Origin: Microbacterium oxydans
Lineage (GTDB): Bacteria > Actinomycetota > Actinomycetes > Actinomycetales > Microbacteriaceae
Assembly (NCBI RefSeq): GCF_026559675.1
Contig: NZ_CP092891.1
Span: forward strand, 496,001 to 560,000
Length of the DNA: 64,000 bases
Reading direction: 5' to 3'
This document shows positions 2,982 to 16,137 of the stretch, piece after piece; the stretch's first letter is position 1, and each line of letters starts with the position of its first letter. The notes beneath the pieces were generated by a model. The model was given only the letters and a program-made list of their open reading frames with translations, made no database searches and was not told the origin of the DNA. The translations under genes and the position numbers were made by a program.

Positions 2982-4016
2982 CTAGCGCGCCGAGCGCGGC
3001 GGTGCGGTGGACGAGCGCACGACGAGCTGCGGATCGGTCGACGGCACCTCCCCGACGGCCTCCTGTCCCTCGATCTGGGCGATGAGACGGAGCGCGGCCG
3101 CACGACCCATGGCCTCGAACGGCTGCCGGACGGTCGTGAGCGCGGGGGAGGCGTAGGCGGCGAGAGCGATGTCGTCGACGCTCACCACGGAGACGTCCTC
3201 GGGAACACTGCGCCCGGCCTCGTGCAGCGCGCGGATCAGTCCGAACGCCATCTCGTCGCTGCTGACGAACACGGCCGTCGCCTCGGGGATCGCCGCGATG
3301 GTCCGACCGGCGCGGTAGCCGGACTCGGGGGTCCAGTCGGCGGGGATCACCGGCGGGGGGACGATGCCCCGGTCGCGGAGCGTCTGCTCCCACGCCTCGC
3401 TGCGCTGCTGCGTCTCGGTCCAGTACTCGTCGCCCGAGACGTGCCACACGGTCGGGTGCCCGAGGTCGAGGAGGTGCTCGACGGCGAGACGGGCGATCGC
3501 GCGCTGATCCACGGCGAGCGGCGCGTCCTCGTCGAGGGAGGTGCGCTCGCTGCGGGTCGCGGGCGTGCGCTCGGTGCGCGCGCGCATCGCCGGGCTCTCG
3601 AGCTCGACCGGGACGCCGAGGATGATGCCCTCCGCCCCCTGACGTTCGAGTCGGTCGAAGGCCTCCAGGAAGGCCTCGACGGACGCGTGGTCGGCGACCG
3701 CGGCCGTCGACACGGTGTAGCCGTTCGCAGCGGCAGCCTGCTGGATGCCGACGCCGAGGGCCGCCGACGAGTACCGGTCGGTGGAGACGACGATCACGCC
3801 CAGCACCCGGGTGCGCCCGGAGGCGAGCGACGCGGCGGCGGCGTGCACGCGGTAGCCGAGCTCCTCCACGGCCGCGAGGACGCGCCGGGCGGTGTCGGGG
3901 CGCACGTTGTCCTGCCCGGACATGACGCGGGAGACGGTCTGCGTGGAGACACCGGCTAGCTGGGCGACGTCGACCTGGCTGGGGGCGCGGTCGTCTCTCG
4001 GGCGGCGAGGTGACAT
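2982..4016 (-). CDS. LacI-family transcriptional regulator
   Basis: A 344-residue repressor-type regulator. The N-terminal helix-turn-helix (VDVAQLAGVSTQTVSRVMSG, residues about 15-34) and hinge helix (LASGRTRVLGVIV) are followed by a periplasmic-binding-protein-like sensor domain. The start at 4016 gives the usual LacI N-terminus; the frame stays open further upstream but that part has no family resemblance. It is divergent from the GH35 gene. The operator-like dyad at 4080-4093, repeated before the GH101 gene and the ABC operon, makes it the likely local regulator of all three. The effector is probably a sugar released from Gal-GalNAc glycans (inference). Confidence 0.9.
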   Translation of the reverse strand: MSPRRPRDDRAPSQVDVAQLAGVSTQTVSRVMSGQDNVRPDTARRVLAAVEELGYRVHAAAASLASGRTRVLGVIVVSTDRYSSAALGVGIQQAAAANGYTVSTAAVADHASVEAFLEAFDRLERQGAEGIILGVPVELESPAMRARTERTPATRSERTSLDEDAPLAVDQRAIARLAVEHLLDLGHPTVWHVSGDEYWTETQQRSEAWEQTLRDRGIVPPPVIPADWTPESGYRAGRTIAAIPEATAVFVSSDEMAFGLIRALHEAGRSVPEDVSVVSVDDIALAAYASPALTTVRQPFEAMGRAAALRLIAQIEGQEAVGEVPSTDPQLVVRSSTAPPRSAR

Positions 4017-4079
4017 GTGGTCAATGGTAGCGATCAATCGGCGGAAAACCAGGAGGCGGCGAGAAGTGTGATGCGATAA

Positions 4080-4093
4080 TGTGAACGCAAACA
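4080..4093. promoter_or_regulatory. LacI-type operator upstream of GH35 gene
   Basis: TGTGAACGCAAACA, the reverse complement of TGTTTGCGTTCACA, an imperfect dyad centred on CG. It overlaps the last base of a -10-like GATAAT (4075-4080) pointing toward the GH35 gene and lies 64 bp before the regulator's own ATG, so it could control both directions. Confidence 0.7.
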
Positions 4094-4110
4094 CTCGTGC
4101 TTGGAGCGCT

Positions 4111-5931
4111 ATGCCTGACCTTCTCGCCTCGGCTCTCGACGGCTCTTCCGTCGCTACCGGAGCCCCGGCCGCCGCGTCGTCGATCGGCGCGCCCACCCTG
4201 ATCTGGCGCGACGGGGAGATCCTTCGCGACGGCGTCTCCCACCGCATCCTCGCGGGGTCGATCCACTACTTCCGGGTGCATCCCGACCAGTGGGAGGATC
4301 GCCTCCGTCGACTCGCCGCGATGGGCGCGAACACGGTCGACACATATGTCGCGTGGAACTTCCACGAGCGCGTCGAGGGCGACGTGCGCTTCGACGGATG
4401 GCGCGACATCGAGCGCTTCGTCCGTCTCGCCGGCGACATCGGTCTGGACGTGTTCCTCCGACCCAGCCCCTACATCTGCGCCGAGTGGTCCAACGGCGGC
4501 CTCCCGTCCTGGCTCTCCGGCCGGGTCGCGGCGCTGCGCACCAGCGACCCCGACTTCCTCGCGGCGGTCGACGCCTGGTACGACGAGCTGATCCCCCGAC
4601 TCGTCCCGCTGCAGGCCTCCCACGGCGGACCGATCGTCGCGATCCAGATCGAGAACGAGTACGGCTCCTTCGGCAGTGACGCCGCCTACCTCGCGCACCT
4701 GAGGGAGGGTCTCCGTCGCCGCGGGATGGTCGAGATGCTCACGACCGCCGACGGCATCACCGGCGACATGATCGAGCACGGCAGCGTTCCCGGCGCGATG
4801 GCCACCTTCACCTTCGGGACCGGGGTCGCGAGGGCGGTGGAGCTGCGCCGCGAGGGTGACGCGCTGATGTGCAGCGAGCTCTGGGGCGGCTGGTTCGACC
4901 ACTGGGGTGAGCGCCACCACGTGCGCTCCGCCGCGAGCACCGGGGGCACGATCGCGGAACTGCTGGCGGCGGGCGGATCGGTGAGCCTCTACATGGCCCA
5001 CGGAGGGACGAACTTCGGTCTCTGGAACGGCGCGAACCACGACCAGGTGCTGCAGCCGACGGTCACCAGCTACGACTCGGATGCACCGATCGGCGAGGAC
5101 GGAACGCTCAACGAGAAGTTCCACGCGCTCCGCGCCCTGTTCGCGCCCTTCCATGCCGCCGAGCTTCCGGCTGTTCCCGCTGCTCCGCGGCGGCAGGGTG
5201 CGGCGACCGCGCCACTCGAGCCTCGGGCCGCTCTGCTGGAGCTGGTCGCGACGCTTCCCGTGACCGGCGACGTCTCGCCGAGGCCGCGCACGTTCGAGGC
5301 GCTCGGCGCCGAAGACGGCCTGGTCGCCTATGAGGCGGACGTGTCGTTCCCCGCCGACGCGATGCTCACGATCGACGGACTGCACGACCGCGCCGTCGTG
5401 TTCCTCGACCGACAGAAGCTCGGGGTCCTGGAGCGGGACCGCGACACGTCGCTGGCGCTGCCGGTCGACGGTGGAGCGGGTCGACTCACGATCGTCGTCG
5501 AGAGCCTCGGGCGCATCAACTACGGCCCGTACACCGGCGAGGGCAAGGGCATCATGCGCGGCGTGATGATCGGACGTCGACTCGTCAACGGATGGACGCA
5601 TCGCCTCGTGCCGCAGGATGCTCCCGTGCCGGTTCCGGGTGGGTCCGCGGATGCCTCCGACGGCGTCGCCGTCGCCTCCTTCGGAATCGCGGAACCGCTC
5701 GACGCCTGGCTCGCCTTCCCCGGCGGGTCGAAGGGGATGGTCTGGCTGAACGGCTTCCTCCTTGGCCGGTACTGGAAGGTCGGTCCGCAGGAGACGCTCT
5801 ACGCGCCGGCGCCGCTCTGGAGGGTCGGCCGCAACGAGATCGTGGTCCTCGACACCGACTGCCTCGGGTCGACCGTCGAGATCCGCGAGGAGCCGTCCTT
5901 CGGCGACACCGAGGAGTTCATCGGCTCCTGA
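4111..5931 (+). CDS. Beta-galactosidase, GH35 family
   Basis: A 606-residue glycoside hydrolase of family 35. It removes terminal beta-linked galactose. The TIM-barrel domain (about 35-350) shows the family motifs SIHYFRVHPDQWEDRL, TYVAWNFHE, RPSPYICAEWSNGGLPSWL, the probable acid/base Glu in IENEYGSFG and the probable nucleophile Glu in CSELWGGWFDHWG; beta-sandwich domains follow, ending with the GRYWKVGPQETLY motif. There is no signal peptide, so it should act in the cytosol on an imported disaccharide. ATG 4111 is preferred over GTG 4081 because GGAG lies 5 nt upstream. A LacI-type operator lies just upstream. Confidence 0.93.
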   Translation: MPDLLASALDGSSVATGAPAAASSIGAPTLIWRDGEILRDGVSHRILAGSIHYFRVHPDQWEDRLRRLAAMGANTVDTYVAWNFHERVEGDVRFDGWRDIERFVRLAGDIGLDVFLRPSPYICAEWSNGGLPSWLSGRVAALRTSDPDFLAAVDAWYDELIPRLVPLQASHGGPIVAIQIENEYGSFGSDAAYLAHLREGLRRRGMVEMLTTADGITGDMIEHGSVPGAMATFTFGTGVARAVELRREGDALMCSELWGGWFDHWGERHHVRSAASTGGTIAELLAAGGSVSLYMAHGGTNFGLWNGANHDQVLQPTVTSYDSDAPIGEDGTLNEKFHALRALFAPFHAAELPAVPAAPRRQGAATAPLEPRAALLELVATLPVTGDVSPRPRTFEALGAEDGLVAYEADVSFPADAMLTIDGLHDRAVVFLDRQKLGVLERDRDTSLALPVDGGAGRLTIVVESLGRINYGPYTGEGKGIMRGVMIGRRLVNGWTHRLVPQDAPVPVPGGSADASDGVAVASFGIAEPLDAWLAFPGGSKGMVWLNGFLLGRYWKVGPQETLYAPAPLWRVGRNEIVVLDTDCLGSTVEIREEPSFGDTEEFIGS

Positions 5932-5944
5932 TCCGGAGCGTACA

Positions 5945-5980
5945 GAGAGCCGTCCCGCACGTGTGTGCGGGACGGCTCTC
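5945..5980 (+). terminator. Strong hairpin terminator after GH35
   Basis: A perfect 16-bp GC-rich inverted repeat (5945-5960 and 5965-5980) with a GTGT loop, 13 bp after the stop codon. A T-rich stretch (CGTCGTCTCTT) follows. Confidence 0.85.
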
Positions 5981-6010
5981 GTCGTCTCTTCGTGGGTGAC
6001 TTTCGGCCAA

Positions 6011-6024
6011 TGTTTGCGCTCGCG
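6011..6024. promoter_or_regulatory. LacI-type operator 1 upstream of GH101
   Basis: TGTTTGCGCTCGCG shares TGTTTGCGCTC with the operator at 15172. It lies 55 bp from operator 2, about five helical turns, with a possible promoter (TTGATA 6037-6042, TATTGT 6061-6066, 18-bp spacer) between them. This spacing would allow looping by a tetrameric repressor (inference). Confidence 0.65.
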
Positions 6025-6065
6025 CGCCGATAGTGCTTGATATATCGTCTCCGCTCCTCATATTG

Positions 6066-6079
6066 TGATAGCGCAAACA
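6066..6079. promoter_or_regulatory. LacI-type operator 2 upstream of GH101
   Basis: TGATAGCGCAAACA carries the conserved half CGCAAACA. It begins at the end of the putative -10 box, where a bound repressor would block transcription start. Confidence 0.65.
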
Positions 6080-6160
6080 TCGCCGGAGATCGTCGATGAT
6101 CACCTGCGACGCATCGGGGCGTCAGTGCTCCCGGGCGTCGCTCCGACCGAGAGGCAAGAC

Positions 6161-9100
6161 GTGTCGAAACCCTCCCGACCGCCCCGCGCTGCCGTCGCCC
6201 TCAGCTCCGTGCTGGCGACGGCGCTCGCATTCGGCGGCATGCTCGCCCAGGCGCCATCCGCCCAGGCCGCGGATCTCATTCCGGTGCCCAAGACCGACTA
6301 CCGCCTGCACGCGGTGTCGAGCGAGTCGGACCCCTATCCGGCTCCTCCGTCTCTCGACGGCACGGCCCTCGGGGCGTTCGACGGCGACTTCGCGACCCAG
6401 TGGACGTCGCGGTACGCGGCCAGCGCCCCGTTCCCGCACTGGATCGTCGTGGATCTGCAGCGGTCGCTTTCGGTGAAGGCCCTCGACTACTCGGTGAAGA
6501 GAGGGCAGGGAGTCGCCGCCAAGACCGTCGAGGTGTATGTGACGGACGACGCCGATGTCGCGCGGACCTCTCCCGCTGACGGCGGGTGGGGTGCGGCCGC
6601 GGGAGCGGCGACGTTGCACGCGCCGACCGCGAACGACGAGAAGCAGCGCATCACGCTCGACACCGCGAAGGACGGTCGCTACGTGGCCCTGCTCGTGATC
6701 GACGCGCAGGGGACCACCGGCGGCGGGGCCGGCGAGATCGAGGTCCTCTCCGACGAGCAGCTGCCTCCCATCGTCACCGAGCCCGAGGTTCCCGACACCG
6801 ACGAGACCGTCGAGATCGCCGACGGCGGGACGACCGCCGTCGTCTCGACGGAGTTCCCCCGCATCGCGGCGTATCGCCTCGGGAGCGAGAGCATCGGCGG
6901 TCAGCGCACCTCGGCGAAGACCTGGTCGGTGAACGGGGCCACCTACGCGTCGGAGACCACGTCGACGGCTTCGGCCACCGGCGTGGACTACGTGTCGAAG
7001 CTGACCGGGATCGACGTCACCGTGCGCAGCAGCATCCGGGTCGCGAAAGACGGAACCATCGGGTTCGAGGTCACGGCCGTCGACGGAACCGCGACCGTGA
7101 CCACGCTCGGTCTCCCGGACAACGCCTTCCTCTCCGCGAGCGCCGCGGATGCCGGGTCGGCACTCGACCGGACGGTGATCAGCCCCGACAGCACGAAGAA
7201 CGCCGACGAGCACATCGCCGTGAACGCGTCGACGGCGACCGGACAGAAGGGGGCGGCCTTCGCCTTCCTCGGCAACGGCGCGCTCGTCGGCAGCGTGATC
7301 ACCAACGCGACGACCCAGGCATCCGGGGGCACCGCCTCCTGGAACACGCGCCTGACCACGCGGGTGACCGAGGCGGCGGGACGCACGGCGGAGATCGGTT
7401 CCAGCGCGTGGCTGATCCATCCGACCACCGCCGTGGACAGCCGGGTGACCACGTACGCCCTGCCGAAGGTCACGGTTCTCCTCGCCGCCGATCGGAACGG
7501 CGACGACTCGGTCGACTGGCAGGACGCGGCGATCCGGTACCGCGAAGTCGACACCCCGCGTCTCGGCGCCGATCGGGTGGCCGAGCGCGTGGTCAGCCGT
7601 ATCCCCTTCAACTTCGCCTCCAGCGCCACGAACTACTTCGACCTGGTGCTCGACAACACCAAGCGGATCGCGAACCAGACCGACGGTCTCGGACAGTGGG
7701 TGCTCAACAAGGGCTACGGCAGCGAGGGCCACGACTCGGCGAACACCGACTACGGCGGGAACTACAACGAGCGCGCCGGCGGCCTCTCCGACCTCAACAA
7801 CCTCGTCGACGAGGGCGCGAAGCTCAACGCCGACATGAGCGTGCACGTCAACGCCACGGAGATGTACCCGCAGGCGAACGCGTTCGACTCCGCGATCATC
7901 GACGGTGCCGCCCCCTACAAGCCGGGGTGGAACTGGCTCGACCAGTCGTACTACATCAACCAGCAGGCCGACCTCGGCACCGGGCGGGTGCTCGATCGCT
8001 TCCAGCAGCTGCGCGACGAGGTGCCCGGCCTCAGCGGCGTCTACATCGACGTGTACTACTCCAACGGCTGGGTCGCCGAGGAGCTCGCGGACGAGCTGAA
8101 CGGCATGGACCTCGAGGTCGCGACCGAGTGGGGTGACAAGTTCGTCGACAGCACGGTCTGGTCGCACTGGCCGAACGACCTGGCGTACGGCGGGAAGGAA
8201 AACAAGGGCATCAACTCCACCATGGTGCGCTTCATCCAGAACGGGCAGGCCGACGTCTGGAACGACGACGCCCTGCTCGGACAGCAGCGGCTGATCGACG
8301 CCGAGGGCTGGGTCGGCAACCGCAACTGGGACGGCTTCGTCGACAACATCTGGAAGCAGAGCCTGCCCACCAAGTTCCTCCAGCACTTCGACCTGCTCAC
8401 GTACCGGGCAGGCGCCGAGGCGACGCTGACGGATGACGTGGCGGTGCGCATGGACGGGAGCACCAGAGTCGTCACGATGGACGGGGCGACGGTGCTGCGC
8501 GGCGACTCGTACCTGCTGCCGTGGCAGTCGCTGGACTCGAATGAGGACTCCGGCTCGCCGGTCGACGCCGACAAGATGTACTTCTACTCCGCAACGGGAG
8601 GCGAGAAGACGTTCGGTCTCACCGACGCCTTCCGCGGCAACACCGCCTTCGACGTCTTCGAGCTCGGTGACCAGGGGCGCGTCAAGGTCGGCACGGCCGA
8701 CGCGACCGGCGGCGAGCTCACACTCAGCGGTGACAAGGGCACGGCCTACGTCGTGGTGCCGCAGGGCGGCGCCCAGCGCGCAGCCGTCGAGTACCACGAC
8801 GCCGGCCTCGACGACCCGGGGTTCAACTCCGGTTCGCTCGATGTGTGGAACCCCCGGGGCGATGTGACGATCGAGCGCACCGACCTCGGCAGCGCGAAGA
8901 ACGAGTCGCGCGGCGACAACATCGCCGTGTTCGGTGCAGCCGCGTCGTCGATCTCCCAGCGGGTGACCGGGCTGGAGCCGGGCGAGCGATACGCCTTCTC
9001 CGCACAGGTGCAGATCGATCCGACCGCGACCCGCGACGTGAGCGTCTCGGTCGATACCGGCTCAGGTGCCGCCACCCGCACGTGGAACCTCTCCCCGACG

Positions 9101-11347
9101 TACAACTACATGCGCGCCGATTCCAAGGCGGGCCAGTACTACCAGCGCGGTTCGACCTCGTTCCTGGCTCCGGCATCCGGCGAGGTCACGGTGTCGATCG
9201 GTGCGGTCGCGGGGGAGTCGAAGGTCCGCATCGACAACGCCCGTGTCGCGGCCGACACCACGTCGCCGTTGGCGGCCGGCACGGTGTACTCGAACGACTT
9301 CGAGGGCGACGAGGCGGGCTGGGGGCCGTTCGTGAAGGGCGACGCCAACGGCATCGACGACCCGCGCACGAGCATCTCCCGTCGTCACGACCCGTACGCG
9401 AGCAGTGACTGGCGCAACACCGCCAAGCCGTTCGATGCGGGGCCGCTGGCCGGGCTCGCGGTGGACACGACGCTGACCGGCGACCACTCGCTCATGTCGC
9501 ACTCCGAGAACAACGGGGTCGTCTACCGCACCGATCCGACGCTCGTCCCGCTGCAGGCCGGGCACTCCTACCGCATCGGCTTCGACTACCAGGTCGGCGC
9601 GAGCGGGGCGTACCGCTGGTTCACCGGGACGGATGCCGTTGCGGGTGGCAAGGTCACCTCGACCACGCTCAGCCGCACCGGGATCACGCAGGCGCTGGAG
9701 ACGGCCGAGTTCTCGCAGGACGTGATCGTCGGATGCGGCGACTACACCTGGGTCGGCCTCGAGCGGGTCGGCGGACCGGACGTGGACTTCGTGTTGGACG
9801 ACTTCACCGTCACCGACCTCGGCCCCACGACCGGCGGCACGCCCTGCGCGACCGTCTCCGGCGAAGCAGGCGTCCTGAGCCCGGGTGCGCAGACCGCGTT
9901 CACGACCACCTTCACCAACAGCGAGTCCCTCGCCGTCGAGAACATCGGCGTGCAGCTCGAGGTGCCGGAGGGCTATGTGGTCGAGGTCGCCGACGGCTCG
10001 TCGAACCTGTTCGCGGAGGTCGCGGCCGGTGACAGCGTGAAGACCACCTGGCTGGTCACCGCGCCCGCGGCGGCCGCCGGCTCGACCGTCGGGATCGGGA
10101 TCGCCGCGACGTACCTCGCGGACTGCGATGTGCGCACGGTCACCACGACGCAGGAGGTGTCGGTGTCGAAGCGAGCCCGCATCCCCAACGCGCAGATCTC
10201 CGCAGCGGCGAGCTCCGAGGAGACGTCGGGCGAAGACGGCGCGGCCGCGAACATGCTCGACGGCAACGCCGGCACGTTCTGGCACAGCCGGTGGAGTTCG
10301 GCCGCCACGTCGTATCCGCACGTGCTGACATTCGACCTCGGTGCTGCCGAGCAGGTCGACGGCATCTCGTACCTGCGCCGCGGCGCCAACCAGAACGGAC
10401 CGATCAAGGGGTACGAGGTCGCGGTGTCGACCGACGGACAGGCGTACACACCCGTCGCCTCGGGTGAGTGGAAGAACGTCGCCGAGTGGCAGGACGTGGA
10501 CTTCGCGGAGACCACGGCTCGCTACATCCGGGTCACCGCCACGTCGTCGATCTCGGGCACGCAGTTCGCCGCCGTCGCCGAGATGGCCGTGTACGGCTCG
10601 TCGGCCGCGCAGGGCGGGCATGCCGCCGAGAAGCGTCCGGCCGATGACCTGAGCGCATGCAACCCGGAGATCGACCCGAAGCTCGGGCTCGATGCCGACT
10701 CGGTGCGCGCCGGGGAGACGGTGGGCATGGCGCTCACCGGCTTCGCGCCGCGATCGACCGTCTCGGTGTGGCTCGACGACGTCAAGCTGACGGATGCCGC
10801 GGTCGACGCGAAGGGTGCCTTGACCACACGTCTGCTGATCCCGGCGAATGCCTCGGTGGGGAAGCATCGCGTGATCGTGCAGGACGCGTCGAACGCCGAA
10901 CTCGCCAGCGCGCCGTTGAAGGTCAAGAAGGCGAAGCCGGGGAAGAAGGCGACCGTCACGGCATCCATCGGCTCGGTCGTCGCCGGGTCGAGCGTGACCG
11001 TGCAGCTGAGCGGATTCGAGCGTGACGCGCTGGTGCAGCTGTGGCTGCACTCCGAGCCGGTGCGCCTCGGTGAGGTGACCGTCTCGGCCGACGGCGATGC
11101 CGTGGCGACCGTCACGATCCCGGCGGCGACGCCGGCGGGTGCGCATGCGCTCGTCGCGACGGACGCCCTGGGCGTCGAGCTGGCGAGGGGTGACCTCGCG
11201 GTCACGGCGGCGCCCGGGACCGGGAGCGGGGGAGACCTCGCGACGACCGGCGTCGACGGAGCCGTCTGGGCAGGGGCGGCGCTCGCGGCCCTGGCCGCGA
11301 TGGGCCTCGGCCTGACCCTGTGGATGCGGAGACGCCGCCACAGCTGA
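6161..11347 (+). CDS. Cell-wall-anchored endo-alpha-N-acetylgalactosaminidase, GH101
   Basis: A 1728-residue secreted enzyme predicted to release the Gal-beta-1,3-GalNAc disaccharide (core 1 O-glycan) from Ser/Thr of glycoproteins. Order: signal peptide (1 to about 36, ending AQA/AD), F5/8-type carbohydrate-binding domain (about 36-165), beta-sandwich, GH101 barrel (about 470-790), two galactose-binding-like domains, a NEW3-like domain, a second F5/8-type domain (about 1330-1470), two Ig-like repeats, then LATTG (1693-1697), a hydrophobic helix and RRRR. Asp630 in YIDVYY and Glu656 in ATEWG fit the family's nucleophile and acid/base. LAxTG suggests a class E sortase. GTG 6161 was chosen for the signal peptide. 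Two operators precede it. Confidence 0.92.
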   Translation: MSKPSRPPRAAVALSSVLATALAFGGMLAQAPSAQAADLIPVPKTDYRLHAVSSESDPYPAPPSLDGTALGAFDGDFATQWTSRYAASAPFPHWIVVDLQRSLSVKALDYSVKRGQGVAAKTVEVYVTDDADVARTSPADGGWGAAAGAATLHAPTANDEKQRITLDTAKDGRYVALLVIDAQGTTGGGAGEIEVLSDEQLPPIVTEPEVPDTDETVEIADGGTTAVVSTEFPRIAAYRLGSESIGGQRTSAKTWSVNGATYASETTSTASATGVDYVSKLTGIDVTVRSSIRVAKDGTIGFEVTAVDGTATVTTLGLPDNAFLSASAADAGSALDRTVISPDSTKNADEHIAVNASTATGQKGAAFAFLGNGALVGSVITNATTQASGGTASWNTRLTTRVTEAAGRTAEIGSSAWLIHPTTAVDSRVTTYALPKVTVLLAADRNGDDSVDWQDAAIRYREVDTPRLGADRVAERVVSRIPFNFASSATNYFDLVLDNTKRIANQTDGLGQWVLNKGYGSEGHDSANTDYGGNYNERAGGLSDLNNLVDEGAKLNADMSVHVNATEMYPQANAFDSAIIDGAAPYKPGWNWLDQSYYINQQADLGTGRVLDRFQQLRDEVPGLSGVYIDVYYSNGWVAEELADELNGMDLEVATEWGDKFVDSTVWSHWPNDLAYGGKENKGINSTMVRFIQNGQADVWNDDALLGQQRLIDAEGWVGNRNWDGFVDNIWKQSLPTKFLQHFDLLTYRAGAEATLTDDVAVRMDGSTRVVTMDGATVLRGDSYLLPWQSLDSNEDSGSPVDADKMYFYSATGGEKTFGLTDAFRGNTAFDVFELGDQGRVKVGTADATGGELTLSGDKGTAYVVVPQGGAQRAAVEYHDAGLDDPGFNSGSLDVWNPRGDVTIERTDLGSAKNESRGDNIAVFGAAASSISQRVTGLEPGERYAFSAQVQIDPTATRDVSVSVDTGSGAATRTWNLSPTYNYMRADSKAGQYYQRGSTSFLAPASGEVTVSIGAVAGESKVRIDNARVAADTTSPLAAGTVYSNDFEGDEAGWGPFVKGDANGIDDPRTSISRRHDPYASSDWRNTAKPFDAGPLAGLAVDTTLTGDHSLMSHSENNGVVYRTDPTLVPLQAGHSYRIGFDYQVGASGAYRWFTGTDAVAGGKVTSTTLSRTGITQALETAEFSQDVIVGCGDYTWVGLERVGGPDVDFVLDDFTVTDLGPTTGGTPCATVSGEAGVLSPGAQTAFTTTFTNSESLAVENIGVQLEVPEGYVVEVADGSSNLFAEVAAGDSVKTTWLVTAPAAAAGSTVGIGIAATYLADCDVRTVTTTQEVSVSKRARIPNAQISAAASSEETSGEDGAAANMLDGNAGTFWHSRWSSAATSYPHVLTFDLGAAEQVDGISYLRRGANQNGPIKGYEVAVSTDGQAYTPVASGEWKNVAEWQDVDFAETTARYIRVTATSSISGTQFAAVAEMAVYGSSAAQGGHAAEKRPADDLSACNPEIDPKLGLDADSVRAGETVGMALTGFAPRSTVSVWLDDVKLTDAAVDAKGALTTRLLIPANASVGKHRVIVQDASNAELASAPLKVKKAKPGKKATVTASIGSVVAGSSVTVQLSGFERDALVQLWLHSEPVRLGEVTVSADGDAVATVTIPAATPAGAHALVATDALGVELARGDLAVTAAPGTGSGGDLATTGVDGAVWAGAALAALAAMGLGLTLWMRRRRHS

Positions 11348-11360
11348 CCCGCTGACGCAG

Positions 11361-11391
11361 AACGGCCCGGAGGATCCTCCTCCGGGCCGTT
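11361..11391 (+). terminator. Hairpin terminator after GH101
   Basis: A perfect 14-bp stem (11361-11374 and 11378-11391) with a 3-nt loop, 13 bp after the GH101 stop codon. Confidence 0.8.
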
Positions 11392-11431
11392 CCGCGTCCC
11401 CCGCCCCCCACCGCGTCCCCCGCGCTGCTGT

Positions 11432-11509
11432 CGAGAGCACGGGACCTCGCCGAGTGCACGGGCTGTCTCCGTGTGCGTGCCGTGCACTCGTCGACACCCC
11501 GTGCACTCG
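11432..11509. repeat. 78-bp four-unit palindromic module, copy 1
   Basis: Units of 11 bp at 11432 (CGAGAGCACGG), 11451 (CGAGTGCACGG), 11480 and 11499 (both CCGTGCACTCG): two direct units 19 bp apart, a 29-bp step, then two inverted units 19 bp apart. Copies 2 and 3 have exactly the same geometry. No credible gene lies in 11392-11771; this region holds two modules and a terminator. Confidence 0.8.
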
Positions 11510-11595
11510 CGGAGCTTCGTGCCCAGAGCTTCGTGCGCCCGGGCTCCGGTGGCGCGGGGTATGCCCGTGAGGCTGCCGGGCGTCTTCACGGTCGT

Positions 11596-11673
11596 CGAGA
11601 GCACGACACCTCGGCGAACGCACGGCGGGTCCCCGTGATTGTCCCGTGCACTCGCGGACACCCCGTGCACTCG
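11596..11673. repeat. 78-bp four-unit palindromic module, copy 2
   Basis: Units at 11596 (CGAGAGCACGA), 11615 (CGAACGCACGG), 11644 and 11663 (both CCGTGCACTCG). Every unit is exactly 164 bp from its counterpart in copy 1. Confidence 0.8.
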
Positions 11674-11691
11674 CGGACACCCCGCACGCAG

Positions 11692-11726
11692 ACGTCCGCC
11701 CTCGGCGGAGTGCCGAGGGCGGACGT
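11692..11726 (-). terminator. Terminator of the sugar ABC operon
   Basis: A perfect 15-bp inverted repeat (11692-11706 and 11712-11726) with loop GGAGT, about 45 bp beyond the permease stop codon on the minus strand. Confidence 0.7.
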
Positions 11727-11771
11727 GGGGCCGGCGGGGACCGACGGGTGTGGGGTGGGAGGAGGAGCGGG

Positions 11772-12692
11772 TCAGCCCTTCACGGCGCCGGCGGCGAGGC
11801 CGGAGCGCCAGTACTTCTGCAGGGCGAAGAACAGCAGCACGAGCGGGATGACCCCGAGCAGGGCACCGAGCATCACCGCGCCCTTGTCCGGGGCGAAGTA
11901 GCTCACCATGCCGTAGAGCCCGAGGGTCACGGGCTTCAGATCCTGACTCGAGATCATCATGAGCGGGAGCAGGAAGTTGTTCCACGTCGCCACGAAGATG
12001 AACAGGAAGATGGTCACCATCGCGGGACCCAGCAGGCGCATCACGATCGTGAAGAAGATGCGGGCCTCGCCGGCTCCGTCGATGCGGGCGGCCTCGAGCA
12101 GCTCGGTCGGGACGGATGACTGCGCGTAGACCATGCCGAGGAAGACGCCGAACGGCGAGACCGCCGAGGGGATGATGATCGCCCAGACGGTGTTCGTCAG
12201 TCCGAGGGCCTGGAACTCGATGTACAGCGGGACGGTCAGCAGTGCCACGGGGAGCAGGAGGCCGGCCATGATGACGCCGACCGCGATGCGCTTGCCGGGG
12301 AAGGCGAACTTCGCGATCGCGTAGCCCGCCATCACGGCGAACAGGGTGCCGATGACGCCGGCGCTCACGGAGTACAGCATCGAGTTGCCGACCCACCGCC
12401 AGAACAGCCCCTGGGTCCAGTTCATCAGGCTGTCGTAGTTGGTGTCGAGGTTCCAGCCGGCGAACCAGAAGCCGAAGGTCGAGGTGAGATCGGTGTTGTT
12501 CTTCGTCGAGGCGACGATGAGCCAGTACACCGGCACCAGGAAGTACAGCGTCGCGACGACGAGCGCGATGATGCCGAACGCACGCGTGACCGGGGTCGGG
12601 GCGATCGAAGGCGGCGGAGCATCCGCGTCGGGCGTCCGGCGGGGGCGTCGACGTGTCGATGCCTCGGTGGTGATGAGGCGCGTGGTGGTCAT
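11772..12692 (-). CDS. Carbohydrate ABC transporter permease (MalG-type)
   Basis: A 306-residue inner-membrane permease with six predicted helices. It carries the EAA-loop motif that contacts the ATPase (EAARIDGAGEARIFFTIVMRL, starting near residue 196) and ends in a short cytoplasmic tail (YWRSGLAAGAVKG) typical of the MalG/CUT1 group. A Pro/Arg-rich cytoplasmic N-terminus precedes helix 1. Its ATG overlaps the stop of the partner permease by 4 nt. It is the last gene of the binding protein-permease-permease operon, whose proposed cargo is the disaccharide released by GH101. No ATPase gene is present here, so a shared MsmK-type ATPase elsewhere is expected. Confidence 0.9.
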   Translation of the reverse strand: MTTTRLITTEASTRRRPRRTPDADAPPPSIAPTPVTRAFGIIALVVATLYFLVPVYWLIVASTKNNTDLTSTFGFWFAGWNLDTNYDSLMNWTQGLFWRWVGNSMLYSVSAGVIGTLFAVMAGYAIAKFAFPGKRIAVGVIMAGLLLPVALLTVPLYIEFQALGLTNTVWAIIIPSAVSPFGVFLGMVYAQSSVPTELLEAARIDGAGEARIFFTIVMRLLGPAMVTIFLFIFVATWNNFLLPLMMISSQDLKPVTLGLYGMVSYFAPDKGAVMLGALLGVIPLVLLFFALQKYWRSGLAAGAVKG

Positions 12693-13666
12693 GCGTCGCC
12701 CTTCCGGCGCTGCAGCAGCGCATACACGATCGCGAGCACACCCGCGATCAGAGCCATGAGCAGGGAGTAGGCGGATGCCGGGCCGCTGCCGGACGGCGAG
12801 ATCTCGCCCATCATCGTGTTGTAGGTGAGCATCATGGGCGTGAAGTCCTTGCCCATCCACGAGTTCGCTGCCTGCAGCACCACCGGCTCGTTGAAGAGCT
12901 GGATCGTGCCGATGATCGACAGCAGCACCGCGAGGAGAGCGGCGCCCCGCACCAGCGGCACCTTGATCCGCATCGAGATCTGGAAGCCGGATGCTCCGTC
13001 GAGGCGCGCCGCTTCGTAGAGGTCGCGCGGAACGGCCTGCAGTGCCGACAGGAAGATGAGCATGTTGTAGCCCGTGTAGGTCCACGTGGTCATGTTCGCC
13101 ATCGAGAAGAGGATCGTGCCCGGTGCCATGAAGTCGGTGCCCTCGGGGAGGAACGGGAGGAAGGGCGAGACCTCCGGCGTGTAGAGGTAGAGCCACATCA
13201 TCGCCGCGATGATGCCGGGGACCGCATACGGCAGGAAGAAGGAGAGCCGGAACAGCGTGGGGCGGCGCACGATGAACGAGTCGAGCAGCAGGGCGAGTCC
13301 GAGGGCGACGAGGATCATCACGGGGATCTGCAGGGCGGCATAGAGGACGACGCGTCCCATGCCGGTCCAGAAGGCGCCGTTCGTCGCGGCGGTGACGAAG
13401 TTCTCGAGCCCGACGAACGTGTCGACGAGTTCTCCGCCGCCGTACAGTCCGTCGCCGGAGGGGACCTGAGCGAAGAACGACGATCGGATCGACACGATGA
13501 TCGGCACCAGGAAGACCAGGACGAAGAGCACGGCGAACGGCGTCATGAACAGCCAGCCGGTGAGGCCCTCGCGTCGGGTGCCGAACCGGCGTCTGCGGGT
13601 GGGATCCGCGGGGATGCGCGGGGTCGGCGCCGGTGCCGTGCCTCGCGTCTCGGTCACTGTGACCAT
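12689..13666 (-). CDS. Sugar ABC transporter permease (MalF-type)
   Basis: A 325-residue permease with six predicted helices and the EAA motif EAARLDGASGFQISMRIKVPL near residue 215. The start at 13666 has GAGAGG about 8 nt upstream and is preferred over a longer frame that begins 39 bp earlier. It is coupled to the MalG-type gene by an ATGA overlap and follows the binding-protein gene after a 90-bp gap containing a hairpin. The pair should form the membrane channel of the importer. Confidence 0.9.
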   Translation of the reverse strand: MVTVTETRGTAPAPTPRIPADPTRRRRFGTRREGLTGWLFMTPFAVLFVLVFLVPIIVSIRSSFFAQVPSGDGLYGGGELVDTFVGLENFVTAATNGAFWTGMGRVVLYAALQIPVMILVALGLALLLDSFIVRRPTLFRLSFFLPYAVPGIIAAMMWLYLYTPEVSPFLPFLPEGTDFMAPGTILFSMANMTTWTYTGYNMLIFLSALQAVPRDLYEAARLDGASGFQISMRIKVPLVRGAALLAVLLSIIGTIQLFNEPVVLQAANSWMGKDFTPMMLTYNTMMGEISPSGSGPASAYSLLMALIAGVLAIVYALLQRRKGDA

Positions 13667-13690
13667 GGTGTCGCCTCTCGCTGTCAAGAC

Positions 13691-13728
13691 GACGGCGGAG
13701 TGCACGATTGCGCGTGCACTCCGCCGTC
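13691..13728 (-). terminator. Intra-operon hairpin between binding protein and permeases
   Basis: A perfect 16-bp inverted repeat (13691-13706 and 13713-13728) with a 6-nt loop and no T-run. A hairpin here would lower permease mRNA relative to the binding protein, a common arrangement in ABC importers. The stem contains GAGTGCACG, as in the 78-bp modules. Confidence 0.65.
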
Positions 13729-13756
13729 GATCATCTGATGATGTCCGCTCGTCGAC

Positions 13757-15079
13757 TCACTTCGCGACCGGCAGGCCGAGGTCCTTCAGGGAGGCGACGG
13801 CCGTGTCCTGGGCGGTGGTGAAGATGTCGGCGACCTTCGCGGTGCCGGCGACCGCCGCGGCGGCGGTCTCGTTCATCTTCGACAGCGTCGAGAAGCCGGG
13901 AGCGTAGGGGAAGTCCGGGTTGAGGTTCTCCGTCGCCGTCCCGAGCTCCGCGAGCACGTCCTGGCCGCCGAACTGGCGGAGCATCTTCTCGGGGGTCTTC
14001 ACGTCGCCCTTGGCGGCGACGACGAGGCCCTGCGACGCGAGGTCGTCGACCTGGGTGTTGAACCAGTCGTTGAACTCCATGGCTTCGGCGGGGTGCTCGC
14101 AGCCCTTCATCACCGAGACGCCCGAGCCGCCGTCGGGGCCGCTCATGGCACCGGCGCCGAAGTCGGCGAGCTGGGCGACGCGCCACTGGCCCTCGGCCGG
14201 AGTGCCGTCGAGCGAGTCGAGGAGGAATCCGGCCTCCCATGCCGCGCCGACGTGGCCGATGAGGCTGCCGTCGTTGAGCGCGGCCGTGAAGCCCTCACCC
14301 CAGCGCTCGGTCGCGAGGGTCTGCTTGCCGTCGAGGAGGCCCTGCCAGAATGCGGCGACGCGCTCGGAGCCTGCGCCCTCCGCGTCGACCTTCCACTCGT
14401 CGCCCGCCGTGCTGAACCAGGTGTCGCCGGCCGCAGCGGACTGAGCGGAGAGCCAGTTCTGCGCCTCGTCGGGCGTGAAGGCCGTCACGTACTTGCCGGC
14501 GGCGGCCGCCGCGGCGGAGTCGGCCGTCAGGTCGTCGAGGGTCTTCGGGGCGTCGAGGCCCAGCGCCGTGAACTCGGCCTCGTTGTAGAAGTAGACGAGG
14601 GGGCCGGTGTCCTGCGGGAGGCCCACGATCGCGTCGCCCACCTTCATGCCGCTGAACGCTCCGGCCGAGAAGTCGTCCTCGTACTTCTTGGCCTCGTCCG
14701 CGACGTCCTGCAGCAGTCCCTTGACGAACAGCTGCGGCACCTCCGAGTAGCCGGTCTGTGCGAGGCAGGGTCCGTTGCCGGCCTTCACGTCGGTCTCGAG
14801 CTTGAGGATCATGTCGCTCGACTTGCCGTCGAACTTCGTCGCCTTCACCTGGATGTCGGGGTGATCGGCGTTCCAGCGGTCGACGATCTCGGACGCGGGC
14901 GTCATCCCCTCGCCGTCGGGGAGACGGTGCAGGTACTCGATCGTGATGGGTTCGCCGTCGGTTCCGCTGGCACCGCTGCCACCGGAATCGCCGGATGAGC
15001 AGGCCGCGAGGCCGAAGGCCGACACCGCTCCCACCGCGACGATCGCGGCGGTGCGGGTGAAGCGAGGGGTGATTGCCAT
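13757..15079 (-). CDS. Sugar ABC transporter substrate-binding lipoprotein
   Basis: A 440-residue extracellular solute-binding protein of the CUT1 type. Residues 1-26 are a signal peptide with lipobox GLAAC (lipidated Cys27), then a Gly/Ser linker and the two-lobed binding domain (about residues 45-430). ATG 15079 was chosen because GAGGAG lies 6 nt upstream. It heads the importer operon. A match to the LacI-type operator lies 93-106 bp upstream, so the operon probably responds to the same sugar as GH35 and GH101. By comparison with bifidobacterial systems it may bind Gal-beta-1,3-GalNAc; this is inference. Confidence 0.9.
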   Translation of the reverse strand: MAITPRFTRTAAIVAVGAVSAFGLAACSSGDSGGSGASGTDGEPITIEYLHRLPDGEGMTPASEIVDRWNADHPDIQVKATKFDGKSSDMILKLETDVKAGNGPCLAQTGYSEVPQLFVKGLLQDVADEAKKYEDDFSAGAFSGMKVGDAIVGLPQDTGPLVYFYNEAEFTALGLDAPKTLDDLTADSAAAAAAGKYVTAFTPDEAQNWLSAQSAAAGDTWFSTAGDEWKVDAEGAGSERVAAFWQGLLDGKQTLATERWGEGFTAALNDGSLIGHVGAAWEAGFLLDSLDGTPAEGQWRVAQLADFGAGAMSGPDGGSGVSVMKGCEHPAEAMEFNDWFNTQVDDLASQGLVVAAKGDVKTPEKMLRQFGGQDVLAELGTATENLNPDFPYAPGFSTLSKMNETAAAAVAGTAKVADIFTTAQDTAVASLKDLGLPVAK

Positions 15080-15171
15080 GCTGTTCTCCTCTTTGAGGTC
15101 ATGTTCTGCGGATCGTCCAGCGGGGTCTGGTGCCGAGGCGCCGTCGATCACATGCACATCAAATCACAGAA

Positions 15172-15185
15172 TGTTTGCGCTCACA
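15172..15185. promoter_or_regulatory. LacI-type operator upstream of ABC operon
   Basis: TGTTTGCGCTCACA, the best dyad of the four (halves TGTTTGC and GCTCACA). It lies between the divergent binding-protein gene and the isomerase-like gene and could control both. Confidence 0.7.
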
Positions 15186-15312
15186 ACTGGGAAATGAGGT
15201 TCAAAACACTTCAATTCAACACCATTGAGGGAGCGCTGACATAGTCTGTTCCCCACGCGTTGACCACGGATCCGTGGCCGTGCCGCGATCGCCCGGAGAG
15301 GACCACCCGCCG

Positions 15313-16137
15313 ATGCCGCTCCGTCCGCTCGTCCTGATGAACGACTGGGTCTCCCCGATGCTGCCGGGGGCGCTGATCGATGCCGCGCTCCGCGACGGAT
15401 ACGACGGTGTCGAGCTCTGGTGGCCGTCGGATGAGCCTGCCCGGCGTGAGCTCGGGGCGGCCGTCCGGGAGACGGGTGCGGCCGTCTCCGTGCTCGTCGG
15501 GAGTGCCGCGGTCGACCCGACCGGGCACCGCCGGGAGCTCGAGCTGCAGCTGGAGGGAGTCCGGGCCGCGGGCATCGACCCCCTGCACGTCACCCTGCAT
15601 GCCGGACGGGATCACTGGAGCGGGCGAGAGCTCGACGCGCTCGCGGAATGGGTGGTGGGCGAGCGCGAGCGGACGAGGCTGGACATCCTCGTCGAGACGC
15701 ATCGCGCGCGGATGCTGCCCACGGCGCATTCCTCGGCGCGACTGCTCGCGCGGCATCCGGGACTCCGTCTGACGCTCGATGCCTCGCACTGGGTCGCCTC
15801 CGCCGAGTCGCTGCTGCAGGATCAGACCGAGGCGGTCGCGCTGGCGATCAGCCGCACCGACCACATCCACGCGCGCTTCGGCCATCCGCAGTCTCCGCAG
15901 ATCGACGAGCCGCGCGATCCTCGGTGGGCGCCGGCGGTCGAGGCGCACCTGGCGTGGTGGGATCGGGTCGTGGAACGGCAGCGGGAGGAGGGGCGACGAC
16001 CCACATTCCTCGCCGAGTTCGGACCGGCCGACTACGCGACGATCGATCCCCGGACAGGACGGCCCCTCGTCGATCCCGCCGAGCTCAACCGGTGGATCAA
16101 AGACCTGATCCGAGAGCGGTACGCCGACCGAGGATGA
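15313..16137 (+). CDS. Sugar phosphate isomerase/epimerase-like TIM-barrel protein
   Basis: A 274-residue protein of the xylose-isomerase-like (AP endonuclease 2) fold. Conserved features are GYDGVELWWP near the N-terminus, HVTLHAG, ILVETHRAR, LTLDASHW, and the barrel-end metal ligands in HIHARFGHPQ and FLAEFGP. Such enzymes isomerise or epimerise sugars or their phosphates using a divalent metal. ATG 15313 gives the expected N-terminus; a GTG at 15274 would add 13 residues. It is divergent from the binding-protein gene and shares the operator region, so a role in catabolism of the imported sugar is likely. The substrate is unknown. Confidence 0.8.
   Translation: MPLRPLVLMNDWVSPMLPGALIDAALRDGYDGVELWWPSDEPARRELGAAVRETGAAVSVLVGSAAVDPTGHRRELELQLEGVRAAGIDPLHVTLHAGRDHWSGRELDALAEWVVGERERTRLDILVETHRARMLPTAHSSARLLARHPGLRLTLDASHWVASAESLLQDQTEAVALAISRTDHIHARFGHPQSPQIDEPRDPRWAPAVEAHLAWWDRVVERQREEGRRPTFLAEFGPADYATIDPRTGRPLVDPAELNRWIKDLIRERYADRG

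What the first reader, a model, noticed from the sequence alone, without database searches (positions are those of the whole stretch)
2982..16137. Putative O-glycan (Gal-GalNAc) utilisation regulon with a shared LacI operator
Sequence shows a LacI regulator, cytosolic GH35, wall-anchored GH101, a CUT1 binding protein with two permeases and a sugar-isomerase-like protein. Four matches to a TGTTTGC-GYTCACA-type dyad (4080, 6011, 6066, 15172) sit upstream of the three operons. GH101 is known to release Gal-beta-1,3-GalNAc. The inferred route is surface release, ABC import and cytosolic cleavage by GH35, replacing the phosphorylase used by bifidobacteria. No GalNAc kinase or deacetylase lies in the window.
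Basis: partly seen in the sequence, partly recalled or inferred. Interest (0 to 1): 0.85.

Follow-up and report, generated by a model that had tools for sequence, protein, structure and literature searches.

The report
Core-1 O-glycan feeding regulon in Microbacterium
A soil-type bacterium carries a compact, jointly switched gene set that should cut the sugar pair galactose-GalNAc off animal-type glycoproteins, import it and split it inside the cell, a route best known from gut bacteria and here built from a different mix of parts.

Summary
Only two exact TGTTTGCGYTCACA sites exist in the 3.78-Mb genome, both in this locus; two variants precede GH101. Across 295 genomes of the genus the exact dyad occurs 71 times (reversed-pattern control: 1), and 67 of these sites adjoin the same LacI/GH35 pair or the same transporter. 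At GH101 the proximal site is conserved in 19 of 19 sister loci and the pair keeps 55-56 bp spacing in 17.

New points. (1) The binding protein is a full-length relative (56% identity) of the bifidobacterial galacto-N-biose/lacto-N-biose binding protein. (2) GH35's best PDB match is 4mad (BgaC, recalled). (3) A GalNAc-type operon lies 345 kb away; it sits beside the cassette in three sister species and is clustered with GH35 and the transporter in two more. (4) A second GH101 type (about 39% identical) adjoins the same LacI-operator-GH35 unit in 5 of 10 loci. (5) The sugar-isomerase-like gene is not conserved. No biochemistry was possible; phosphorylase absence is inconclusive.

The parts
2982..4016 (-). 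LacI-family repressor (344 aa), divergent from GH35
   Evidence: Pfam LacI + Peripla_BP_3; orthologues 91-97% in 19 of 21 type-A GH101 loci
4080..4093 (-). LacI operator O1 (TGTTTGCGTTCACA), between lacI and GH35, overlapping a putative -10 box (by eye)
   Evidence: Exact match, one of two in the genome; dyad invariant except one central base in 25 of 25 aligned loci
4111..5931 (+). GH35 beta-galactosidase, no signal peptide seen (by eye), predicted cytosolic Gal-beta-1,3-GalNAc hydrolase
   Evidence: PF01301; best of 28 PDB sequences is 4mad, which I recall as BgaC of Bacillus circulans
6011..6024 (+). Distal operator O2 of GH101 (TGTTTGCGCTCGCG)
   Evidence: 2 mismatches; TGTTTGCGC present in 17 of 19 sister loci, 55-56 bp from O3
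6064..6079 (-). Proximal operator O3 of GH101 (TGTTTGCGCTATCACA)
   Evidence: 2 mismatches; TGATNGCGCAAACA present in 19 of 19 sister loci
6161..11347 (+). GH101 endo-alpha-N-acetylgalactosaminidase with F5/8C domains; signal peptide and C-terminal LATTG-type anchor seen by eye
   Evidence: PF12905, 362 bits; aligned to 3ecq (SpGH101) and 2zxq (EngBF); D177 and E203 of the domain invariant in 12 of 12
11772..12692 (-). CUT1 ABC permease 2
   Evidence: Orthologues 88-98% in sister loci
12689..13666 (-). CUT1 ABC permease 1
   Evidence: BPD_transp_1; orthologues 84-99%
13757..15079 (-). Galacto-N-biose/lacto-N-biose-type substrate-binding protein
   Evidence: 2z8d (with 2z8e, 2z8f) 451 bits over full length; 7vfr 470 bits; 225 of 405 aligned residues identical to 2z8d
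15172..15185 (+). LacI operator O4 (TGTTTGCGCTCACA) upstream of the binding protein
   Evidence: Exact match; invariant except one central base in 17 of 17 aligned loci
15229..15242 (+). Second conserved element (GGGAGCGCTGACAT) upstream of O4 with respect to the transporter; function unknown
   Evidence: AGCGCTGACAT invariant in 17 of 17 aligned loci; exact at only 2 places in the genome, the other at a MarR-like/MFS-like gene junction

Best explanation
This is a local LacI-family regulon for catabolism of core-1 mucin-type O-glycans. Surface-anchored GH101 releases Gal-beta-1,3-GalNAc (galacto-N-biose, GNB) from Ser/Thr. A bifidobacterial-type GNB/LNB binding protein with two CUT1 permeases imports the disaccharide. 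Cytosolic GH35 hydrolyses it to galactose and GalNAc. GalNAc then goes through an unlinked operon (SIS deaminase/isomerase, ROK kinase, PfkB kinase, class II aldolase, DeoR regulator, at G000:C1:149433-153914) together with a NagA deacetylase. LacI represses lacI/GH35, GH101 and the transporter from four operators, paired in front of GH101, and is released by an imported sugar or its product. Shown here: gene families, operator specificity and conservation, conserved neighbourhood, and presence and linkage of the GalNAc-type operon. Inferred: binding, inducer, enzyme and transporter specificity, and the assignment of each GalNAc enzyme to its step.
For: Operator specificity: own genome; 42 of 295 genomes, 71 exact sites, control 1; 67 of 71 within 250 bp of a LacI, GH35 or SBP orthologue's start: 64 of 68 in 51 fetched loci plus 3 of 3 in L002, L003, L115. 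Conservation: 25 of 25 at O1, 17 of 17 at O4; 19 of 19 proximal, 17 of 19 paired at 55-56 bp. Transporter. GH35: with the BgaC passages. GH101. Co-occurrence: exact operator in 30 of 32 GH101 genomes and in 30 of 32 SBP genomes; SBP in 22 of 32 GH101 genomes. Second GH101 type beside the same LacI-operator-GH35 unit in 5 of 10 type-B loci. GalNAc-type operon. SIS gene listed for 29 of 32 GH101 genomes and 30 of 32 SBP genomes, against 102 of 267 overall.
Against: No biochemical or expression data. The closest relatives of GH35 and SBP also handle lacto-N-biose, so GNB specificity is not proven. Ten of 32 GH101 genomes show no orthologous SBP (two of these assemblies are 76-77% complete). The GalNAc-type operon has no LacI operator, and 102 of 267 genomes have its SIS gene, so it also serves other purposes. 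The SIS protein is under every NCBIfam cut-off, and AgaS proper is not met. No BNR_2 sialidase was found in the genome, so sialylated core-1 would need partners. The co-occurrence p-values ignore phylogeny.
Confidence: 0.82

Rival explanations
1. The core cassette (LacI, GH35, ABC) is primarily a beta-1,3-galactoside scavenger (lacto-N-biose, GNB or other Gal-beta-1,3 sugars), and GH101 was added later as one of several possible suppliers.
For: 12 of 42 genomes with the exact operator have no detected GH101; in 10 of those 12 the operator adjoins a GH35 and/or SBP orthologue (L134-L136, L138-L140, L142-L145). In two species (L135, L142) the SBP operator faces a GH20 gene instead. The PDB name of 2z8d gives both GNB and LNB.
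Against: In the window's group GH101 itself carries two conserved operators, and the GalNAc-type operon adjoins the GH101-free cassette in three species, which points to GalNAc-containing sugars.
Confidence: 0.3
2. The enzymes act on a non-animal glycan (plant, fungal or bacterial beta-galactoside), and the O-glycan reading is misleading.
For: The genus is environmental, and many GH35 enzymes act on plant galactosides (both recalled).
Against: GH101 with conserved catalytic motif, GNB-type binding protein, GalNAc-type operon, fucosidases near type-B GH101 or its GH35.
Confidence: 0.07
3. The dyad is a generic LacI-family motif and the four sites do not form one regulon.
For: Loose matching is not above chance. 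Other CG-centred dyads occur in the genome, such as the TGGGAGCGCTCCCA pair near G000:C1:454233. Four of 71 exact sites in the genus lie away from the cassette.
Against: Exact sites are confined to this locus in the genome and almost to its orthologues in the genus, 67 of 71.
Confidence: 0.04

Closest known systems
Bifidobacterial GNB/LNB pathway (EngBF GH101, LnbABC/GL-BP transporter, LnpA phosphorylase, NahK)
   Same: Surface GH101 and an ABC transporter with a closely related binding protein (56% identity)
   Different: Cytosolic GH35 hydrolase sits where the phosphorylase would be; LacI regulon; GalNAc probably through an aga-like operon. Phosphorylase not found, but without a working positive control; NahK not searched
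Lactobacillus casei gnb operon (PTS-Gnb, GnbG GH35, gnbE, gnbF)
   Same: Intracellular GH35 specific for beta-1,3 linkages plus GalNAc-6-P deacetylase and GalN-6-P deaminase genes (passages, PMC6109692)
   Different: PTS import with phosphorylated substrate; here ABC import, so unphosphorylated substrate, a kinase needed, and GH101 in the same regulon
Streptococcal bgaC-gadVWEF / aga regulon
   Same: GH35 BgaC next to a sugar importer, and a regulon joining it to GalNAc genes (passages, PMC4694137)
   Different: PTS and AgaR (not LacI); GalNAc genes are under the same regulator there, here in an unlinked operon that ends with its own DeoR gene
LacI-GH35-GH101(-ABC) loci of Leifsonia, Streptomyces and Actinacidiphila
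   Same: Same gene families close together, LacI about 50% and GH35 about 53% identical
   Different: Binding protein only about 34% identical, seen in 4 of 62 loci; different shared dyad, TGTTATCGATGCCA-like

Membership tests
GH101 endo-alpha-N-acetylgalactosaminidase | GH101 catalytic domain | tested here: met
   PF12905 362 bits in the genome scan, cut-off 25
GH101 endo-alpha-N-acetylgalactosaminidase | Catalytic Asp and Glu aligned with SpGH101 | tested here: met
   Aligned to 3ecq; D177 and E203 of the domain invariant in 12 of 12; residue roles and their spacing recalled
GH101 endo-alpha-N-acetylgalactosaminidase | Release of GNB from core-1 glycoprotein | not testable with these tools
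   Needs enzyme assay
GNB/LNB ABC transporter (GL-BP type) | Full-length homology of the binding protein to GL-BP | tested here: met
   451 bits, residues 31-439 of 440, 225 of 405 identical
GNB/LNB ABC transporter (GL-BP type) | Two CUT1 permeases in the operon | tested here: met
   no ATPase gene seen in the locus
GNB/LNB ABC transporter (GL-BP type) | Ligand-contact residues conserved; GNB bound | not tested
   No residue-level test made; binding needs an assay
GH35 beta-1,3-galactosidase (BgaC type) | GH35 domain and nearest solved relative BgaC | tested here: met
   PF01301; 4mad best of 28 PDB sequences; that 4mad is B. circulans BgaC is recalled
GH35 beta-1,3-galactosidase (BgaC type) | Beta-1,3 specificity towards GalNAc | not testable with these tools
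   Needs enzyme assay
Bifidobacterial lnp pathway | GNB/LNB phosphorylase (PF09508) | tested here: inconclusive
   0 of 295 genomes of the genus and 0 of 246 phylum genomes, but nothing rang in any control either
gnb/aga PTS route | Import by PTS | tested here: not met
   The transporter in the regulon is ABC; PTS genes elsewhere in the genome were not searched
gnb/aga route, GalNAc branch | Deacetylase, deaminase/isomerase, tagatose-P kinase, aldolase in the genome | tested here: met
   At family level only: NagA at cut-off; SIS-ROK-PfkB-class II aldolase-DeoR operon. AgaS proper (TIGR02815) not met
Local LacI regulon | Shared operator before each unit, restricted to the locus, conserved with it | tested here: met
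   binding itself not tested

The most novel reading that the evidence does not exclude
Environmental Actinomycetota run a third, independent solution for galacto-N-biose: bifidobacterial-type ABC import, GH35 hydrolysis and an aga-type GalNAc operon. It is held together by a lineage-specific LacI whose operator has been rewritten between genera while the gene set was kept, and it supports feeding on O-glycans of small animals such as nematodes and insects rather than on gut mucin. Three of the closest named relatives (MYb54, MYb62, MYb72) are Caenorhabditis elegans isolates.
Probability: 0.35. Interest if true: 0.75.

Novelty: new variant of a known kind. Interest (0 to 1): 0.55.

Why it matters
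It gives a nearly complete, testable route for core-1 O-glycan use outside the gut, from cleavage to central metabolism. It mixes parts of the bifidobacterial (ABC) and lactobacillal/streptococcal (GH35, aga) routes. The operator is unusually clean for a LacI regulon and lets the regulon be predicted in genomes of the genus. The GH101 and GH35 enzymes, and a GNB sensor built on this LacI, would be useful glycan-analysis tools.

Tried and rejected
Loose counting (3 mismatches) is at chance and was not used as evidence.

Six other 2-mismatch sites in the genome were looked at (gene names by eye). At least two lie inside coding frames, and the others lie at unrelated genes (a dipeptidase-like, a surface-protein-like, a trpE-like and a peptide-transporter-like gene, the last beside another LacI). 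None looks like a GalNAc or glycan gene, so I rejected a wider regulon in this genome.

TIM-barrel gene as a pathway member: rejected for lack of conservation. GNB phosphorylase search: no control rang in two searches, so no absence is claimed. AgaS (TIGR02815): one 35-bit hit in a 636-aa frame, probably GlmS. Sialidase BNR_2: none in the own genome, while 5 of 14 control genomes rang. A first dyad search in other genera with a near-perfect palindrome criterion mostly failed; the shared-word search gave the TGTTATCGATGCCA motif, so that motif was derived from the same loci in which it was then counted.

My gene caller is a simple codon-usage script. It merged or lost lacI in some loci (for example L063, L065, L135, L142, L144, L274, L275); tblastn finds lacI there.

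Full report
WHERE IT IS. The window is G000:C1:496001-560000 of a single-contig 3.78-Mb genome. In the named collection the 18 closest GH101 loci are all Microbacterium (80-99% identity in the catalytic domain, including M. oxydans, M. maritypicum and M. paraoxydans). I therefore take the organism to be a Microbacterium near M. oxydans (inference).

THE OBSERVATION. The genes are as described. The dyad is TGTTTGCGYTCACA. Two sites are exact (4080 minus, 15172 plus) and two are 2-mismatch variants (6011 plus, 6066 minus). A scan of the whole genome with up to 2 mismatches gives 10 sites. The only two exact sites are here; the other six outside the locus all have 2 mismatches, and the reversed pattern gives 4. 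Counting with 3 mismatches in the window is at chance (6 against 4.08), so the strength lies in the exact sites, their place and their conservation.

CONSERVATION. GH101 is found in 32 of 295 genomes of the genus, the own genome included. I fetched the other 31 loci. They fall into a type like the window's (21 loci, L051-L071) and a second type (10 loci, L041-L050) about 39% identical to it over the best match and 51% in the catalytic domain for the five aligned. LacI and GH35 lie upstream of GH101 in the same order in 19 of 21 type-A loci; extra genes are inserted between GH35 and GH101 in two of these, L058 and L060. In the lacI/GH35 spacer of 25 loci (window, 19 type A, 5 type B) the dyad is invariant except for its one central base; upstream of the transporter the same holds in 17 of 17. 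In front of GH101 the proximal site is present in 19 of 19 and the distal one in 17 of 19, always 55 or 56 bp apart. That spacing suggests two repressor dimers on about the same face of the DNA (inference).

REGULON TEST ACROSS THE GENUS. The exact dyad (TGTTTGCGNTCACA) occurs in 42 of 295 genomes, 71 sites in all, against 1 for the reversed pattern. By script, 67 of 71 sites lie within 250 bp of the start of a LacI, GH35 or binding-protein orthologue of at least 55% identity: 64 of 68 in 51 fetched loci, plus 3 of 3 in L002, L003 and L115. The four others are in G011, G067 (148056), G137 (761339) and G141. The operator is present in 30 of 32 GH101 genomes; the two exceptions, G030 and G163, are 76-77% complete. 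It is present in 30 of 32 binding-protein genomes. GH101 and the binding protein share only 22 genomes of 32 each. Fisher p is 5e-29 for the first two pairs and 3e-18 for the third, but these ignore relatedness.

WHAT THE PARTS ARE. The binding protein matches PDB 7vfr/7vfq and 2z8d/2z8e/2z8f, the galacto-N-biose/lacto-N-biose I binding protein, over its full length (451-470 bits). 225 of 405 aligned residues are identical to 2z8d. The next PDB sequence scores only 94 bits. GH35 has 4mad as its best of 28 PDB sequences; I recall 4mad as BgaC of Bacillus circulans. Passages of PMC7329766 report that this BgaC makes Gal-beta-1,3-GalNAc and hydrolyses the product. GH101 aligns with SpGH101 and EngBF, and the catalytic Asp and Glu are invariant across both Microbacterium types (12 of 12 aligned).

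THE MISSING GALNAC BRANCH. Two genomes with diverged binding proteins (67 and 71%) and no exact operator, G055 and G192, carry GH35, a SIS-domain protein, a ROK kinase, a PfkB kinase, a class II aldolase and a DeoR regulator in one run. The transporter directly follows in G055, which also has a NagA-like gene; in G192 it lies about 3.5 kb on. In G055 my caller shows only part of GH35, named by eye. Searching the SIS protein in 267 genomes of the genus gave 102, the window's own included. At G000:C1:149433-153914 lie SIS, ROK, PfkB, class II aldolase and DeoR in the same order (58, 51, 44, 68 and 42% identical to G192), 345 kb from the locus and without a LacI operator. In G067, G119 and G031 the same five genes sit directly beside the LacI/GH35/ABC cassette; lacI there was called by the gene script in G067 and found by tblastn (68%) in the other two. 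NagA is present once at the model's cut-off, and a second NagA-like frame lies below it. The SIS gene is listed for 29 of 32 GH101 genomes; for G253, G280 and G286 I cannot tell whether they were sampled. The step assignments (GalNAc kinase, deacetylase, deaminase/isomerase, tagatose-6-P kinase, aldolase) are inferred from families and context. No NCBIfam model names the SIS protein above cut-off.

MODULARITY. Twelve of 42 operator genomes have no detected GH101; in 10 of them the operator adjoins a GH35 and/or binding-protein orthologue (L134-L136, L138-L140, L142-L145), often as the compact cassette LacI-operator-GH35-permeases-SBP-operator. In two of them the operator before the SBP faces a GH20 gene. 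Type-B GH101 sits next to LacI-operator-GH35 in 5 of 10 loci. Three of the remaining five are cut by contig ends, and in two (L045, L050) the cassette lies elsewhere in the genome. Some type-B loci also bear fucosidases (GH29 by Pfam in L043; GH95-like and GH29-like proteins by eye). So GH101 looks like one supplier module plugged into a GNB-uptake core.

BEYOND THE GENUS. Among 62 GH101 loci of other genera, 21 have a GH35 homologue, 20 a LacI homologue and 4 a binding-protein homologue (about 34%) within the fetched flank. None has the exact dyad. Leifsonia, Streptomyces and Actinacidiphila loci share another dyad, TGTTATCGATGCCA-like: with up to 3 mismatches to TGTTATCGATAACA, 72 distinct sites in the 62 loci against 5 for a rearranged control, 58 of them within 400 bp of the start of one of these genes (one search prints each palindromic site twice: 144, 10, 116). 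That motif was found in these same loci, so the count is descriptive. The gene set seems kept while the operator changed (inference).

COMPARISON. PMC5583593 passages describe GnbPTS with intracellular GnbG, and LnbABC with the phosphorylase LnbP, as import routes for GNB. PMC6109692 passages call GnbG a GH35 enzyme specific for beta-1,3 linkages, in an operon with GalNAc-6-P deacetylase and GalN-6-P deaminase genes. PMC4694137 passages show streptococcal bgaC with a PTS in a GalNAc regulon. The present system resembles all three but combines LnbABC-type import with GH35 hydrolysis and a tagatose-type GalNAc operon. I saw no description of it in the listings of searches (lists capped at 8-20 papers). 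One search (Microbacterium + endo-alpha-N-acetylgalactosaminidase) found a single paper, and its passages name Microbacterium only in a count of taxa (PMC9120202). The library is open-access only.

LIMITS. Everything is sequence-based. GNB against LNB preference, the inducer and any loop between the two GH101 operators are untested. Absence of the phosphorylase is not shown. With no BNR_2 sialidase found, the strain would need unsialylated core-1 or partner microbes. The link to nematodes rests on three named relatives listed among C. elegans isolates (PMC6908608 passages) and is a lead only.

Noticed in passing
window 15229-15242: GGGAGCGCTGACAT, about 43 bp beyond O4 from the transporter gene; AGCGCTGACAT invariant in 17 of 17 loci. 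One half resembles the TGGGAGCGCTCCCA dyad found elsewhere in the genome, so it may be a site for a second LacI-type regulator.
   Followed up: partly
window 15313-16137: Xylose-isomerase-like TIM-barrel gene diverging from the transporter; not found in the 31 sister loci as fetched; in 9 of them a MOSC-like gene (by eye) lies beyond the transporter instead.
   Followed up: partly
L289 (G000:C1:454233): Two copies of TGGGAGCGCTCCCA before a sugar-binding-protein-like gene, possibly a cellobiose-type (CebR-like, recalled) LacI operator pair.
   Followed up: no
L064 and L163 (Microbacterium sp. CBA3102): GH101 matches in two pieces, with a break around 10.93 kb of L064: decay or a sequencing error.
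   Followed up: no
L043 15473-16753; L046 4659-7916 and 15233-18769: Fucosidases (GH29 by Pfam in L043; GH95-like and GH29-like by eye in L046) beside type-B GH101 or GH35.
   Followed up: partly
L135 9428-10948, L142: GH20 hexosaminidase gene facing the transporter across the shared operator in two GH101-free species.
   Followed up: partly
L137, L146: Exact dyad in front of an ABC transporter/GH35-like cluster with only about 40% identity, next to a large GH38-like protein (by eye): possible operator sharing by a paralogous regulon.
   Followed up: no
L178-L205 (Arthrobacter, Leifsonia, Streptomyces and others): TGTTATCGATGCCA- or TGTTATCCATAACA-like dyads upstream of GH101, LacI, GH35 and SBP genes.
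   Followed up: partly
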